This document shows, one piece after another, positions 1,734 to 7,569 of a DNA stretch of 7,701 bases. The position numbers and the translations under genes were made by a program. This stretch comes from Oscillospiraceae bacterium (GTDB lineage: Bacteria > Bacillota_A > Clostridia > Oscillospirales > Ruminococcaceae), in the NCBI GenBank assembly GCA_018109965.1, contig JAGBFE010000282.1, positions 1 to 7,701 on the forward strand. Direction: 5' to 3'. Under the pieces are notes generated by a model. The model had not been told where the DNA came from. It did not search any database and worked only from the letters and a program-made list of their open reading frames with translations. Within the stretch, counting starts at the first letter, position 1. Each line of letters starts with the position of its first letter.

Positions 1734-3695
1734 ATGAGAAAAAATGCATCTAAAATTTATACAGCAATTATCTTCATATTCCTGTTTGCACCTATAGCAA
1801 TTTTGCTTGTTTTTTCCTTCAATGACGGCAAAAGCCTTTCTGTTTTCAGCGGCTTTTCACTGAGATGGTACAAGGAACTGCTCAACGACCGCAATACACT
1901 TGAGGCACTCAAAAACTCACTTGTGCTTGCGTTTTCTGCAACAGCAATTTCTGCTGTTCTCGGTACAGCAGCATCTGTTGGCATCAACAAGCTGCGTTCC
2001 AAATGGTACAGAACAGCAATCGATACAGTTACAAACATTCCAATGACCAACCCTGATATCATCACAGGTATTTCATTGATGCTTATGTTTGTGTTTGTGG
2101 GCAGACTGTTCGGGGCTTCCACAAGCCTCAACTTTATGACAATGCTCATAGCCCACGTTACATTCTGTCTGCCGTATGTTATTCTGCAAGTACTGCCAAA
2201 ACTGCAGCAGATGGACAAATCTCTTCCGGAAGCAGCAATGGACCTTGGGTGTCCGCCTTTGCGTGCATTCTTCAAAGTTGAATTGCCGGAAATTATGCCT
2301 GGTATCATCACAGGTGCAATTATGGCATTTACAATGTCCCTTGACGACTTTGTAATCAGTTATTTTACAGCAGGCAACGGCTTCCAGACATTGCCAATCC
2401 GCATTTACGGTATGACCAAAAAGACAGTTACACCAAAGATGTATGCTCTGGCAACAATTATCTTTTTTGTAACCCTCAGTCTTTTACTTATCAACAATAT
2501 TGTTGATAACGAAGACAGCCGCAAACTTGCGGAAGCCAAAAAGGCGGCAAAAGGCGAAAAACCTGATGGTGACTACAACCCTAACAAACGCAACGCGGCA
2601 CTTGCACTTGCAGCAGTTATTGTTGTTGTGCTCAGTGTTGGTGCCTTCAAAGGCTCAGCAGGAGCATTGGAACTCAATGTTTACAACTGGGGCGAATATA
2701 TCTCCGATGGCAGCGAAGGCAGTTTTGATACCATAAAAGAATTTGAAAACTGGTACGAAGAAACCTACGGCCAAAAGGTTGTGGTTAACTACGATACTTT
2801 TGCATCCAATGAGGATATGTACAACAAGATTTCGGGCGGCGCAGTGAGCTATGATATTATCATTCCGTCCGACTATATGATTGCTCGTATGGCAAACGAA
2901 GGTCTGCTGCAGCCGCTGGATTTTGAAAATATCCCTAACTACAGCAATATTGACGATACTTTCCACGGTCTGTACTATGACCCGGACAATCAGTATACAG
3001 TGCCTTACACATACGGCATTGTGGGTATCATCTACGATGCAAATGTGGTTGACGAAGCCGACACAGGCAGATGGGACTTGCTGTGGAACGAAAAATATTC
3101 CAACAAAATTGTTCAGTTCAACAACTCCCGTGATGCATTCGGCACAGCAATGTACAAGCTTGGCATTGATGTAAACACAAAAGATGCTGCATTGTGGGAT
3201 AAAGCACACGCAGAACTTATGAAACAGCGTCCGTTGGTTTACAGCTTTGTAATGGACGAAATTTTCAACATTATGCAGTCGGGCGAAGCTTCAATCGGTG
3301 CATACTATGCAGGTGACTATTTCACAATGATGGAAGACCAGGCTGACAATGTTGACCTGCAGTTCTACTATCCTGAACACACAAATATGTTTATCGATGC
3401 AATGTGCATTCCAACCTGTGCACAGAACAAGGAACTTGCTGAAATATTTATCAACTATATGCTCAGCGAAGATGCTGCAATTGCAAATGCAGAGTACACA
3501 TATTACGCTTCACCTAACAAACTGGTATATGAAAACGAAACATATATCGAAGATATGGGCGAAGATGTTGTGGAAATTCTTTATCCGGAAATCGGTGACT
3601 TTGCATCAGAATATAACCAGTACGCATACCGCACCCTTGACAGGGAAATGCTGGACTATATGAACAATCTGTGGGAAACAGTAAAAATCAACTAA
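1734..3695 (+). CDS. potCD: Fused polyamine permease and substrate-binding protein (PotC-PotD)
   Basis: One continuous 653-residue frame joins two normally separate subunits. Residues 1-256 are a PotC-type permease with six hydrophobic segments (about 8-29, 60-84, 108-127, 133-157, 190-212, 236-256) and the EAA loop EAAMDLG at 166-172. Residues 257-286 form a charged linker, presumably cytoplasmic. A seventh hydrophobic segment follows (about 287-305) and would cross outward. Residues 312-653 are a PotD/PotF-like periplasmic-binding-protein fold, opening with LNVYNWGEY. Likely ligand-pocket residues by comparison with PotD/PotF are W319, Y322, D467 (E. coli PotD E171 position), Y525 and D528 in YYAGD, and D555 in FIDAM. 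There is no lipobox cysteine before the binding domain, so tethering is by helix, not lipid. The start ATG has GGAGGT at 1720-1725, eight bases upstream. Binding-protein fusions to permeases are known in other ABC families. Confidence in both domains is high; exact polyamine preference is open. Confidence 0.94.
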   Translation: MRKNASKIYTAIIFIFLFAPIAILLVFSFNDGKSLSVFSGFSLRWYKELLNDRNTLEALKNSLVLAFSATAISAVLGTAASVGINKLRSKWYRTAIDTVTNIPMTNPDIITGISLMLMFVFVGRLFGASTSLNFMTMLIAHVTFCLPYVILQVLPKLQQMDKSLPEAAMDLGCPPLRAFFKVELPEIMPGIITGAIMAFTMSLDDFVISYFTAGNGFQTLPIRIYGMTKKTVTPKMYALATIIFFVTLSLLLINNIVDNEDSRKLAEAKKAAKGEKPDGDYNPNKRNAALALAAVIVVVLSVGAFKGSAGALELNVYNWGEYISDGSEGSFDTIKEFENWYEETYGQKVVVNYDTFASNEDMYNKISGGAVSYDIIIPSDYMIARMANEGLLQPLDFENIPNYSNIDDTFHGLYYDPDNQYTVPYTYGIVGIIYDANVVDEADTGRWDLLWNEKYSNKIVQFNNSRDAFGTAMYKLGIDVNTKDAALWDKAHAELMKQRPLVYSFVMDEIFNIMQSGEASIGAYYAGDYFTMMEDQADNVDLQFYYPEHTNMFIDAMCIPTCAQNKELAEIFINYMLSEDAAIANAEYTYYASPNKLVYENETYIEDMGEDVVEILYPEIGDFASEYNQYAYRTLDREMLDYMNNLWETVKIN

Positions 3696-5357: not shown

Positions 5358-5372
5358 GCAACCAAAGGTTGC
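5358..5372. promoter_or_regulatory. Perfect inverted repeat GCAACC-AAA-GGTTGC, possible sixth copy of the S24-repressor operator
   Basis: The 15-base site GCAACCAAAGGTTGC has the same CAAC-N5-GTTG architecture, and most of the same core, as the five operators at 6986-7140. It sits between a possible -35 TTGCAC (5351-5356) and a weak -10 GATAGT (5375-5380, 18-base spacer). This resembles the promoter of the small membrane protein gene, where an operator fills the spacer. As RNA it would instead fold into a tight hairpin with a three-base loop. There is no T-run, so it is not a terminator. The operator reading is inference from similarity. Confidence 0.45.
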
Positions 5373-5438: not shown

Positions 5439-5798
5439 ATGGCAATGGCAAGTTTGTTTGGTGGGGCAACAATACTTTTTATCTTATTGTTTTATGGACT
5501 GATGTTTGGTCTGACAGTATACATATTGATGCTGATTATCCGAGCACTCAAAAAATACATTAACTCAAACAATACAAAGGAGAATATAATAATTCAGCAG
5601 TCATTGGGTGAAAGTATCAAAAATCATCGTATGAGATGCAATATGACACAGGAGTTTGTGGCAGAAAAGCTGGGTGTAAGCCGTCAGGCAGTGTCCAAAT
5701 GGGAGAGCGGAAAATCTGACCCAAGCACAGCAAATCTTATTGCTCTTGCAAAACTGTATGGTATCTCGATAGAAGAACTGCTTAAAAATATTCAATAA
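5439..5798 (+). CDS. Small XRE-family helix-turn-helix protein with an N-terminal membrane anchor
   Basis: This 119-residue protein has two parts. Residues 1-35 contain one long hydrophobic stretch (about 11-34) followed by basic RALKKY, which by the positive-inside rule places the rest in the cytoplasm. Residues 57-117 are an XRE/Cro-CI HTH domain: a GESIKNHRMRCNMTQEFVAEKLGVS-type first half, RQAVSKWESGKSDPS across the recognition helix, and LAKLYGISIEEL at the end. It is therefore likely a membrane-bound DNA-binding regulator; its target and signal are unknown. GGAGGG at 5426-5431, seven bases before the ATG, is a strong ribosome binding site and fixes the start. A 90-base gap with inverted repeats lies upstream, and a shared terminator follows immediately downstream. 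In most XRE proteins with membrane segments that I know, the HTH comes first, so the order here is unusual. Confidence 0.88.
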   Translation: MAMASLFGGATILFILLFYGLMFGLTVYILMLIIRALKKYINSNNTKENIIIQQSLGESIKNHRMRCNMTQEFVAEKLGVSRQAVSKWESGKSDPSTANLIALAKLYGISIEELLKNIQ

Positions 5799-6355: not shown

Positions 6356-6979
6356 TTACCACTTGGTTTTTGTTTCAACAACTTTACCTGCAATGTAAAC
6401 ATTGTTCAGGTCCTCGCCGCTGATGATTTTTGGTTCATAATCAGGGTTGAAAGGTGAAAGAATTATAGTGTTGCCGCGGCGGCTGAACTTTTTCAGTGTG
6501 CCTTCGTTATCTCCGTAAACAATAACACCAAGGTCACCGTCGTTGAGCGTAGGCTGTTTGTGCACAAGGGCAAGGTCGCCGTCTTTGATGCGGGGTTCCA
6601 TGCTGTCACCGCGCACGATGAGATAAAAATATTCATCTGGGTTTCTCACGTTGGCGTATTCATAACCATAATCGTCATTGTATGCCAAAGCATTGTAACC
6701 TGCACGAACAGTACCGATAACGGGGATGCCAAAGCCCTCATCTTCGTATTCCACTTCAAAAGGAAATACATCAGCAATGGAAGGCACTTCTCTGCCTAAA
6801 AGAAAGTCAACGCTTGTCTGGAAAATTTCAGCAAGCTTTGAAAGCGTATCGGTATCAGGCGTGCTTTTGCCTGTTTCCCATTTGCCGATTGCCTGCTGGG
6901 TAACCTTTAACTGCTTTGCAAGCTCTGCCTGACTCATTTTATTGTCTTTTCTTAATTTCTTAATCTGCTGGCCGAACAT
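6356..6979 (-). CDS. XRE-HTH / peptidase S24 self-cleaving repressor (LexA/HdiR/CI-like)
   Basis: This 207-residue repressor has an N-terminal XRE HTH (about 3-62, with MSQAELAKQLKVTQQAIGKW at the core) and a C-terminal S24 autoprotease. The cleavage site is A93-G94 in GTVRAG. The catalytic dyad is S126 in RGDSMEP and K163 in GTLKKF, matching S119 and K156 of E. coli LexA. All parts needed for self-cleavage, probably stimulated by RecA filaments or other stress, are present. It differs from true LexA, which has a winged helix and not an XRE domain; HdiR of Lactococcus is a closer design. The frame could extend to 7048, but AGGTGG at 6992-6987 is seven bases before the ATG at 6979, and the extension would run through the promoter. 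An operator copy overlaps this ribosome binding site and another abuts the -35, so it likely represses itself. It also probably represses the divergent small membrane protein. Confidence 0.94.
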   Translation of the reverse strand: MFGQQIKKLRKDNKMSQAELAKQLKVTQQAIGKWETGKSTPDTDTLSKLAEIFQTSVDFLLGREVPSIADVFPFEVEYEDEGFGIPVIGTVRAGYNALAYNDDYGYEYANVRNPDEYFYLIVRGDSMEPRIKDGDLALVHKQPTLNDGDLGVIVYGDNEGTLKKFSRRGNTIILSPFNPDYEPKIISGEDLNNVYIAGKVVETKTKW

Positions 6980-6985
6980 ACATTC

Positions 6986-7000
6986 ACCACCTATAGTTGT
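6986..7000. promoter_or_regulatory. Operator copy 1, overlapping the repressor ribosome binding site
   Basis: ACCACCTATAGTTGT matches the ACAAC-N5-GTTGT consensus with one mismatch. Its left end, read on the - strand, is GGTGGT, part of the repressor's Shine-Dalgarno. It lies downstream of the predicted repressor transcription start (near 7006), so bound repressor would block early elongation or promoter escape. Confidence 0.72.
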
Positions 7001-7012
7001 TATTTTACATAC

Positions 7013-7041
7013 ATTATACAACATAAATTTGTATTTGTAAA
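7013..7041 (-). promoter_or_regulatory. Promoter of the S24 repressor gene
   Basis: On the - strand, -35 TTTACA (7041-7036) and -10 TATAAT (7018-7013) are separated by exactly 17 bases. The -10 is a perfect match and the -35 matches five of six. The predicted start is near 7006, about 27 bases before the ATG. The -35 abuts operator copy 2, and copy 1 lies just downstream, which supports autoregulation. Confidence 0.85.
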
Positions 7042-7055
7042 CAACCAAAAGTAGT
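7041..7055. promoter_or_regulatory. Operator copy 2, next to the repressor -35 box
   Basis: ACAACCAAAAGTAGT has a perfect left half (ACAAC) and a right half with one mismatch (GTAGT for GTTGT). It shares one base with the -35 box of the repressor promoter and extends upstream of it. Confidence 0.72.
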
Positions 7056-7071
7056 AAAATTTATAAAAAAT

Positions 7072-7086
7072 ACAACCAAAAGTGTT
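7072..7086. promoter_or_regulatory. Operator copy 3, overlapping the -35 of the small membrane protein gene
   Basis: ACAACCAAAAGTGTT has a perfect left half and a degenerate right half. Its core CAACCAAAAG is identical to that of copy 2. It overlaps the first two bases of the TTGACA -35 at 7085-7090. Confidence 0.65.
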
Positions 7087-7113
7087 GACAACAACCGATA
7101 GTTGTGATATCCT
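7085..7113 (+). promoter_or_regulatory. Promoter of the small membrane protein gene
   Basis: The consensus -35 TTGACA (7085-7090) and the -10 TATCCT (7108-7113, four of six) are spaced by exactly 17 bases. The predicted start is near 7120. Operator copy 4 fills 15 of the 17 spacer bases, copy 3 overlaps the -35 and copy 5 lies just downstream. This is a strong -35 under dense repression, typical of inducible promoters. Confidence 0.85.
7091..7105. promoter_or_regulatory. Operator copy 4, inside the promoter spacer
   Basis: ACAACCGATAGTTGT has perfect ACAAC and GTTGT arms around five bases. It starts directly after the TTGACA box and ends two bases before the -10, so bound repressor would exclude RNA polymerase. 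Confidence 0.85.
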
Positions 7114-7125
7114 TTAATCAAAGGA

Positions 7126-7140
7126 ACAACCAATAGTTGT
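7126..7140. promoter_or_regulatory. Operator copy 5, downstream of the small-gene transcription start
   Basis: ACAACCAATAGTTGT has perfect arms, and one flanking base on each side extends the symmetry (AACAAC/GTTGTT). It differs from copy 4 only at the variable sixth-plus-one base (A for G). A lone half site GTTGT follows at 7146-7150. Confidence 0.85.
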
Positions 7141-7164
7141 TACAGGTTGTTAAAGGTGAAGGTT

Positions 7165-7437
7165 ATGAAAAAACAGAGCAGAATTACAATAGCAAACGGT
7201 ATGACAGTTATTGCAGCATTTGCAACATTTATGTGTCTTTTTGCAATTAACGGCATCACATTGCAGACAGCAGTTGCTTTGGTTGCGGCTATGGGATGTG
7301 CTTATCTTACAGCTTGTTTTTTCAAAGTTGAAAATCTGCTCAGAAAACAGAGAGCAGCACAGATAAAGGCAAACCGTCAGAGACAGGCACGTCAGCAGCT
7401 TAAAGTGGTGCGCAAGGCAGATATCAAAGTTGCTTGA
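7165..7437 (+). CDS. Small two-helix membrane protein with a basic tail, controlled by the S24 repressor
   Basis: I do not recognise this 90-residue protein. Two hydrophobic segments (about 12-30 and 33-53) form a hairpin with a very short turn at N29-G30. The remaining 37 residues are rich in Arg, Lys and Gln (including NRQRQARQQLKVVRK), probably a cytoplasmic amphipathic helix able to touch membrane lipids, nucleic acid or an acidic partner. AAGGTG at 7153-7158, six bases before the ATG, sets the start. A TTG at 7147 in the same frame would overlap this site and is rejected. Its promoter carries three copies of the repressor's operator, so it is likely silent until the repressor cleaves itself. 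By position it recalls yneA, the SOS division inhibitor divergent from lexA in Bacillus, but no LysM domain is present. A division inhibitor, toxin or stress-response membrane factor are all open; none is shown. Confidence 0.82.
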   Translation: MKKQSRITIANGMTVIAAFATFMCLFAINGITLQTAVALVAAMGCAYLTACFFKVENLLRKQRAAQIKANRQRQARQQLKVVRKADIKVA

Positions 7438-7532
7438 TTTTATTGACATAAAAATATTATCTGTATGTTTGGTAATATTATTTTGTGATTATATATCGAT
7501 TATATAGCAATAGCGTCATAAATTAACCATTT

Positions 7533-7563
7533 AAACAGGTGATTGGCAGCGATCACCTGTTTT
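7533..7563 (+). terminator. Rho-independent terminator of the small membrane protein gene
   Basis: AAACAGGTGAT (7533-7543) pairs with ATCACCTGTTT (7552-7562). An inner T-G and G-C pair leave a GCAG loop. The stem is followed by a T-rich tail (TTTTGTTGTGTTTG from 7560). It lies about 95 bases after the stop, giving the small gene an unusually long 3' untranslated region. Confidence 0.9.
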
Positions 7564-7569
7564 GTTGTG

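What the first reader, a model, noticed from the sequence alone, without database searches (positions are those of the whole stretch)
6356..7565. Self-cleaving repressor, five operators and an unknown small membrane protein form one inducible module
An XRE-S24 repressor with intact cleavage site and catalytic dyad is divergent from a 90-residue two-helix membrane protein with a very basic tail. Five copies of one operator (consensus ACAACCNAWAGTTGT) lie between them, three around the small gene's promoter. The plan matches lexA-yneA of Bacillus (damage-induced division inhibitor beside its repressor), but neither the repressor type, the operator nor the effector is the same. No phage or integrative-element genes are visible nearby, so it may be a resident stress switch. 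The operators and the dyad are seen; induction and effector function are inferred.
Basis: partly seen in the sequence, partly recalled or inferred. Interest (0 to 1): 0.75.

Follow-up and report, generated by a model that had tools for sequence, protein, structure and literature searches.

The report
LexA stand-in and its membrane partner
Some gut bacteria of the Ruminococcaceae seem to run their DNA-damage (SOS) response with a phage-type self-cleaving repressor instead of LexA, and beside it sits a small membrane protein that looks made to appear only under damage and then be destroyed quickly.

Summary
In detail: a 207-aa XRE-S24 repressor (A93-G94, S126/K163) divergent from a 90-aa two-helix membrane protein. 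Four operators between them are conserved in register in seven relatives (ACAACYNNNRGTTGT); the fifth (7072) is not.

The reading changes: the repressor most likely is the LexA of its lineage, not a side switch. Exact operators occur 43 times in 7 genomes (reversed control 0), at recA, radA, a DNA-repair radical-SAM gene, a Y-family polymerase and phage-type regulators. Canonical LexA (PF01726) is absent from 7 of 7 close genomes; in a 197-genome family draw it occurs with 0 of 30 strong orthologues of the repressor, against 114 of the other 167. Exact boxes precede recA in 15 of 28 orthologue-bearing genomes examined; 11 have none.

The small protein accompanies this repressor (fixed rule: 30 of 36 loci), not canonical lexA (0 of 30). 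Median pairwise identity is 18%, yet 30 of 30 end in [AVST]-Ala, like an ssrA degron. I infer a short-lived SOS membrane effector, perhaps a division brake. Binding, cleavage, induction and function are untested. The kind is known (non-canonical LexA; lexA-sosA/yneA layout); lineage, box and effector appear new.

The parts
6356..6979 (-). XRE-S24 repressor, 207 aa; HTH residues 1-60, cleavage site A93-G94, dyad S126/K163; proposed SOS master repressor
6986..7000 (.). operator O1, ACCACCTATAGTTGT, just before the repressor's start codon
7013..7041 (-). predicted repressor promoter, TTTACA - 17 - TATAAT
7041..7055 (.). operator O2, ACAACCAAAAGTAGT, abutting the repressor's -35
7072..7086 (.). 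weak operator-like site, not conserved beyond the window and L001
7085..7113 (+). predicted promoter of the small gene, TTGACA - 17 - TATCCT; TTGACAACAAC motif present at 27 of 36 loci
7091..7105 (.). operator O3, exact, between -35 and -10 of the small gene
7126..7140 (.). operator O4, exact, 35 bp after O3 in the window and the seven close relatives
7165..7437 (+). 90-aa two-helix membrane protein with basic tail ending in -KVA; proposed short-lived SOS effector
7533..7562 (+). intrinsic-terminator-like site after the small gene

Best explanation
The repressor is the functional LexA (SOS master repressor) of a lineage of gut Oscillospiraceae/Ruminococcaceae that lacks canonical LexA. It binds the 15-bp palindrome ACAACYNNNRGTTGT as a dimer (inferred from conservation): between -35 and -10 and again just past the start of the small gene, and beside the -35 and before the start codon of its own gene. 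DNA damage loads RecA on single-stranded DNA, the S24 domain cuts itself at A93-G94 (inferred), and the genes it holds down are released: its own gene, recA-recX, radA, a DNA-repair radical-SAM gene, in one genome a Y-family polymerase, phage-type regulators, and the small membrane protein. The small protein is a two-helix hairpin whose basic tail probably lies in the cytoplasm; its ssrA-like C-terminal -[AVST]A would hand it to a cytoplasmic protease such as ClpXP, so it lasts only while it is being made (inferred). By position its most likely job is to hold back cell division until repair is done (inferred, about even odds).
For: 43 exact operators in 7 genomes, reversed control 0, at recA 7 of 7, radical-SAM repair gene 7 of 7, radA 5 of 7, the pair itself 7 of 7, phage-type regulators and one Y-family polymerase (one representative of each named by profile). 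PF01726 in 0 of 7 close genomes but over its cut-off in 136 of 197 of the order. Family draw: PF01726 (E<=1e-6) with 0 of 30 strong orthologues against 114 of the other 167, Fisher 1.4e-13, not corrected for kinship. Exact box upstream of recA in 15 of 28 orthologue-bearing genomes, control palindrome 0 of 28. Exact box at 30 of 35 repressor loci and 0 of 30 canonical lexA loci. Cleavage and recognition-helix residues invariant in 36 of 36. Small gene at 30 of 36 repressor loci and 0 of 30 lexA loci by a fixed rule; C-terminal [AVST]A in 30 of 30 complete proteins against 2 of 415 background proteins, median identity 18%.
Against: No experiment. 11 of 28 orthologue-bearing genomes have no box within one mismatch upstream of recA; 5 of 35 repressor loci have no exact box, and these 5 also lack the small gene. 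At weaker thresholds LexA and the repressor overlap: 6 of 38 (E<=1e-45 with PF01726 E<=1e-6), 16 of 38 with PF01726 at E<=1e-3. The second repressor B is more LexA-like by profile (95.7 bits, against 69.5 for this one; cut-off 110.95). A polymerase box was seen in 1 of 7 genomes only. The small protein lacks the LysM domain and predicted topology of known division inhibitors.
Confidence: 0.72

Rival explanations
1. The second XRE-S24 repressor (B, e.g. L048:2061-2660) is the SOS master and binds the boxes; the window's repressor is one of its targets.
For: B has an exact box beside it in 6 of 7 close genomes and scores higher against the LexA profile (95.7 bits).
Against: B was not found in G004, which keeps its 5 boxes; matches of 70% identity or more occur in 6 of 37 genomes, all in the close group, and the best full-length match in the 30 family genomes is 51%, although boxes at recA and at the window-type repressor persist there. 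B lies next to a phage-type regulator (PHROG 36) and, at L050, a terminase (PHROG 979). It has one box, the window-type repressor four conserved ones.
Confidence: 0.08
2. The repressor is the SOS regulator, but the small protein is not a division inhibitor: it damages or depolarises the membrane like SOS-induced small toxins, or tunes a transporter or sensor.
For: Very basic hydrophobic hairpin; large sequence drift (median identity 18%) suggests action on lipid or a loosely defined partner. TisB and Hok as comparisons are recalled, from no call.
Against: Divergent placement beside the SOS repressor is the layout of SosA (PMC6851548, passages read). No antisense RNA was looked for.
Confidence: 0.4
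3. The module is a local stress switch or captured phage immunity region without a wider role.
For: The repressor is of phage type (PHROG 4, E 7.2e-50).
Against: Regulon of repair genes and exclusion of canonical LexA. Of 797 phage records with a match all are below 60% identity; the best, 58.7%, is an unannotated 4.6-kb scaffold called Bacteriophage sp. and the next of the ten listed is 41%.
Confidence: 0.07

Closest known systems
Non-canonical LexA of Bacteroidetes (PMC8565304; passages and section 18 read)
   Same: Phage-type HTH_3 plus S24 protein in place of LexA, autoregulated, palindromic box, regulon with recA and error-prone polymerases
   Different: Other phylum; its boxes are reported as GGA-N5-TCC (GGA-N5-TTC in section 18) and CTAA-N5-TTAG; the paper reports no matches outside Bacteroidetes. 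No membrane effector partner was looked up there.
HdiR of Streptococcaceae (described in PMC8565304, passages)
   Same: XRE-S24 stand-in for LexA in Firmicutes; in S. thermophilus reported to control cinA-recA and umuC
   Different: Reported regulons mainly polymerases; orthology with the window's repressor not tested
FddR of Francisella (PMC13148647; abstract and discussion read)
   Same: S24 repressor of phage type divergent from a gene of unknown function, damage-induced
   Different: Small network, canonical SOS genes not induced; box GTG-N11-CAC
SosA / lexA-sosA of staphylococci (PMC6851548; passages and section 10 read)
   Same: Small membrane protein divergent from the SOS repressor; its extreme C-terminus governs turnover
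   Different: 77 aa, one membrane segment, extracellular C-terminus, turnover linked to CtpA; here two segments and a tail predicted cytoplasmic
YneA of Bacillus subtilis (PMC13396833; passages read)
   Same: Short-lived SOS-induced membrane protein
   Different: One membrane segment plus extracellular LysM domain, degraded by CtpA and DdcP; no LysM here

Membership tests
Canonical LexA (TIGR00498 / PF01726) | LexA winged-helix DNA-binding domain PF01726 | tested here: not met
   No PF01726 in the repressor; TIGR00498 69.5 bits against a cut-off of 110.95, matching the S24 part only
Non-canonical (S24, phage-type HTH) SOS master repressors | HTH_3 plus S24 domains with Ala-Gly and Ser-Lys residues | tested here: met
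Non-canonical (S24, phage-type HTH) SOS master repressors | Canonical LexA absent from the genome | tested here: met
   0 of 7 close genomes; 0 of 30 strong orthologues in the family draw. The window's own genome is not held
Non-canonical (S24, phage-type HTH) SOS master repressors | Own palindromic box at its gene and at SOS genes | tested here: met
Non-canonical (S24, phage-type HTH) SOS master repressors | RecA-dependent self-cleavage, box binding, damage induction | not testable with these tools
   needs bench work
HdiR | Orthology with lactococcal/streptococcal HdiR | not tested
   No HdiR sequence was fetched
YneA/SosA-type SOS division inhibitors | Gene divergent from the SOS repressor gene | tested here: met
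   30 of 36 repressor loci
YneA/SosA-type SOS division inhibitors | One membrane segment with extracellular C-terminal part (LysM in YneA) | tested here: not met
   Two segments in 31 of 31, no LysM; the topology is a prediction by hydropathy and charge
YneA/SosA-type SOS division inhibitors | Blocks cell division | not testable with these tools
   needs expression and microscopy

The most novel reading that the evidence does not exclude
A lineage of gut Clostridia lost LexA and rebuilt the SOS response around a captured phage-type repressor with its own SOS box. The repressor carries with it a new family of SOS effectors: two-helix membrane hairpins that drift widely in sequence but keep a built-in ssrA-like C-terminal degron, so that their action ends by itself when transcription stops. 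Prophages of the lineage have adopted the same box to sense damage.
Probability: 0.55. Interest if true: 0.75.

Novelty: new variant of a known kind. Interest (0 to 1): 0.64.

Why it matters
If right, it is another independent replacement of LexA by a phage-type repressor, here within Clostridia and with both states present in one family, so the switch can be traced. It gives a concrete SOS box for gut bacteria in which a search with LexA motifs would look in the wrong place, which bears on predicting prophage induction and damage-induced mutagenesis in the gut. The small protein would be a new kind of damage effector whose lifetime is written in its last two residues, directly testable in a laboratory strain.

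Tried and rejected
Mobile-element origin: see the third rival; no relative of either protein was confirmed in viral contigs (those scans reach close relatives only). B as master regulator: see the first rival. The fifth operator (7072): not conserved. GAAC-N4-GTTC, the Gram-positive LexA box as I recall it, served as a control motif: it was found at 0 of 30 canonical lexA loci as well, so it says nothing either way. Rfam and tRNA scans of the window: nothing. Solved structures: the repressor matches LexA, UmuD and CI chains over its S24 part or HTH; the small protein has no useful match. Searches for this regulator in print (effectors and degrons) listed nothing that describes it, judged from titles, abstracts' starts and the passages read. 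The library holds open-licence papers only. The gut SOS meta-regulon paper (PMC3998124, passages) used a Gram-positive LexA motif and holds none of the words Ruminococc-, Faecalibacterium, Clostridia or ACAAC.

Choices and dropped rows: the small ORF at each locus was first chosen by eye by start site and membrane segments; one search repeats it with a fixed rule. L123 duplicates L006 and was left out of the family set. The family search returned 38 genomes with an orthologue but loci for 30 of them at most, so 28 family loci besides L001-L007 and the window were analysed. One search took 30 of the 36 orthologue-bearing family genomes other than G001 and G006; recA was not found in 2 of the 30. 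In one search three of 30 lexA loci were not parsed; one search covers all 30 but allows a slightly wider distance there. The 415 background proteins contain related proteins and are at least 150 aa long, so that comparison is rough. E-values and counts across genomes are not corrected for kinship. Completeness of the genomes is not stated by the tool, so single absences (such as B in G004) are weak.

Full report
What is in the window. The window comes from a relative of gut Oscillospiraceae (Ruminococcaceae): its repressor is 99% identical to one in MAG SIG523 (L001). The window's own genome is not held. The repressor (6356-6979, minus strand, 207 aa) has an N-terminal HTH_3 and a C-terminal S24 domain. 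It is divergent from a 90-aa protein (7165-7437, plus strand) with two hydrophobic segments and a basic tail. Two operators between them are exact, two have one mismatch, and a further site at 7072 has two. In an alignment with seven relatives four operators stay in register and 7072 does not.

The regulon. The operator is a palindrome, ACAACYNNNRGTTGT. In the seven genomes that hold L001-L007 it occurs exactly 43 times (5 to 7 per genome); the pattern read backwards occurs 0 times. I read the surroundings of the sites. They lie at the repressor/small-gene pair (14 sites), recA (7 of 7 genomes), a radical-SAM DNA-repair gene (7 of 7), radA/sms (5 of 7), a second S24 repressor (B) with a divergent phage-type regulator (6 of 7), a Y-family polymerase (1 genome) and another phage-type regulator read by eye (1 genome). 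Two sites remain unclear: L051 at 119, near a contig end and on the side where radA lies in other genomes, and L052 at 2078, between genes that I read by eye as polC and a small VOC-family protein. One representative each of RecA (TIGR02012), RecX, RadA (TIGR00416), the radical-SAM protein (TIGR03916) with its downstream neighbour TIGR03915, and the polymerase (DNA polymerase IV/V models, below their cut-offs) was named by profile; the other copies I recognised by sequence. In 197 genomes drawn from the order, 50 have any exact match, none but G001 has more than 2, and the reversed control is of similar size. So the dense use of the box belongs to this lineage.

Loss of LexA. PF01726 is found in 0 of 7 close genomes; the same search finds it over the cut-off in 136 of 197 genomes of the order. 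In a draw of 197 from the family, orthologues of the repressor at E<=1e-45 occur in 38 and PF01726 at E<=1e-3 in 134, over the cut-off in 123. Strong orthologues (E<=1e-70, 30 genomes) never coincide with PF01726 at E<=1e-6, while 114 of the other 167 genomes have it (Fisher 1.4e-13, kinship not corrected). The exclusion softens with the thresholds: 6 of 38 against 108 of 159 for E<=1e-45 with E<=1e-6, and 16 of 38 against 118 of 159 with PF01726 at E<=1e-3. Among S24 matches in the seven close genomes the window-type repressor is the only full-length one present in all seven.

The box follows the repressor. Of 30 orthologue-bearing family genomes searched, 28 gave recA. Of these, 15 have an exact ACAAC-N5-GTTGT within 300 bp upstream and 2 more have one mismatch; 11 have nothing closer than two mismatches. 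A control palindrome reaches one mismatch or better in 0 of 28. At the repressor gene 30 of 35 loci have an exact box; 30 canonical lexA loci from sister genomes have none. TTGACAACAAC, which puts the box directly behind the -35 of the small gene, is present at 27 of 36 loci. Residues Q28, Q29 and K33 of the recognition helix and A93, G94, S126 and K163 of the cleavage machinery are invariant in 36 of 36.

Why not the second repressor. B (L048:2061-2660) lies beside a phage-type regulator (PHROG 36), and at L050 a terminase follows (PHROG 979); at L054 the genes after it do not look phage-like. It was not found in G004, where 5 boxes remain. Matches of 70% identity or more are confined to 6 of the 37 genomes searched, all in the close group; the best full-length match in the 30 family genomes is 51%. 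By profile B is the more LexA-like protein (95.7 against 69.5 bits), which speaks for it, but the boxes persist without it. It most likely belongs to a prophage or prophage remnant that uses the host's SOS box.

The small protein. A fixed rule (ATG, closed ORF of 60-120 aa, at least two hydrophobic segments, start within 300 bp on the divergent side) finds it at 30 of 36 repressor loci and, with a slightly wider distance, at 0 of 30 canonical lexA loci. Of the six loci missed, L146 carries one that runs off the contig end. At L131 a 402-aa ORF that reads like a transposase follows instead, L134 has two tRNA-Ser genes upstream, and L147, L149 and L150 have other ORFs. These five also lack an exact box at the repressor. 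The sequences differ widely (median pairwise identity 18%), yet all 30 complete proteins end in Ala preceded by Ala, Val, Ser or Thr (20 in Ala-Ala), against 2 of 415 background proteins. All 11 protein clusters found by homology end likewise; some are near copies of the same proteins. That a C-terminal Ala-Ala is the core of ssrA-type ClpXP signals is established knowledge, recalled here; the tmRNA tag of these genomes was not examined. AlphaFold2 gives two helices (2-29, 33-89) at moderate confidence (mean pLDDT 70, pTM 0.37).

How it most likely works. Shown by sequence: anatomy, operators, regulon, absence of LexA from the close genomes, invariant cleavage residues, conserved C-terminus. 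Inferred: binding, RecA-driven cleavage, induction by damage, degradation and arrest of division. There is precedent for the regulator: phage-type S24 proteins run the SOS response in Bacteroidetes (PMC8565304), and HdiR, UmuDAb and FddR run smaller networks (PMC8565304 and PMC13148647). There is precedent for the layout: SosA is divergent from lexA and its last ten residues affect turnover, with CtpA as the likely protease (PMC6851548); YneA is a further short-lived membrane inhibitor (PMC13396833). The present protein differs in predicted topology and probably in the protease that removes it. Named homologues of the repressor at about 62-64% identity come from Gemmiger, Pygmaiobacter and Ruthenibacterium.

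Verdict. Observation confirmed with one operator fewer; interpretation raised for the regulator (SOS master, not a side switch) and left open for the effector. New variant of a known kind.

Noticed in passing
L048, L050, L054, L022, L033, L041; also L044:1501 (G007): An exact host SOS box precedes phage-type regulators beside a second XRE-S24 repressor in 6 of 7 close genomes, and near another phage-type regulator in G007; prophages may tap the host's damage signal through the new box.
   Followed up: partly
1734-3695 (+): One ORF of 653 aa joins a transport permease domain and an extracellular solute-binding domain (PotC-PotD-like fusion by my reading; domains).
   Followed up: no
5439-5798 (+): 119-aa protein with an N-terminal hydrophobic stretch and a C-terminal XRE helix-turn-helix (domain).
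   Followed up: no
5358-5372 (+): GCAACCAAAGGTTGC, a palindrome close to the operator (3 mismatches), lies upstream of the small XRE gene; relation to the operators unknown.
   Followed up: no
L179-L208: 30 canonical lexA loci of sister genomes have neither the new box nor GAAC-N4-GTTC upstream, so the box of the family's canonical LexA is itself unclear.
   Followed up: no
L229 (MT839076.1) 309-929: An unannotated 4.6-kb record called Bacteriophage sp. encodes a 58.7% relative of the repressor without an exact box; possibly bacterial DNA in a phage collection.
   Followed up: partly
L052:2078 (G005): One exact box lies between a polC-like and a small VOC-family-like gene (read by eye): a possible extra target or chance.
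   Followed up: no
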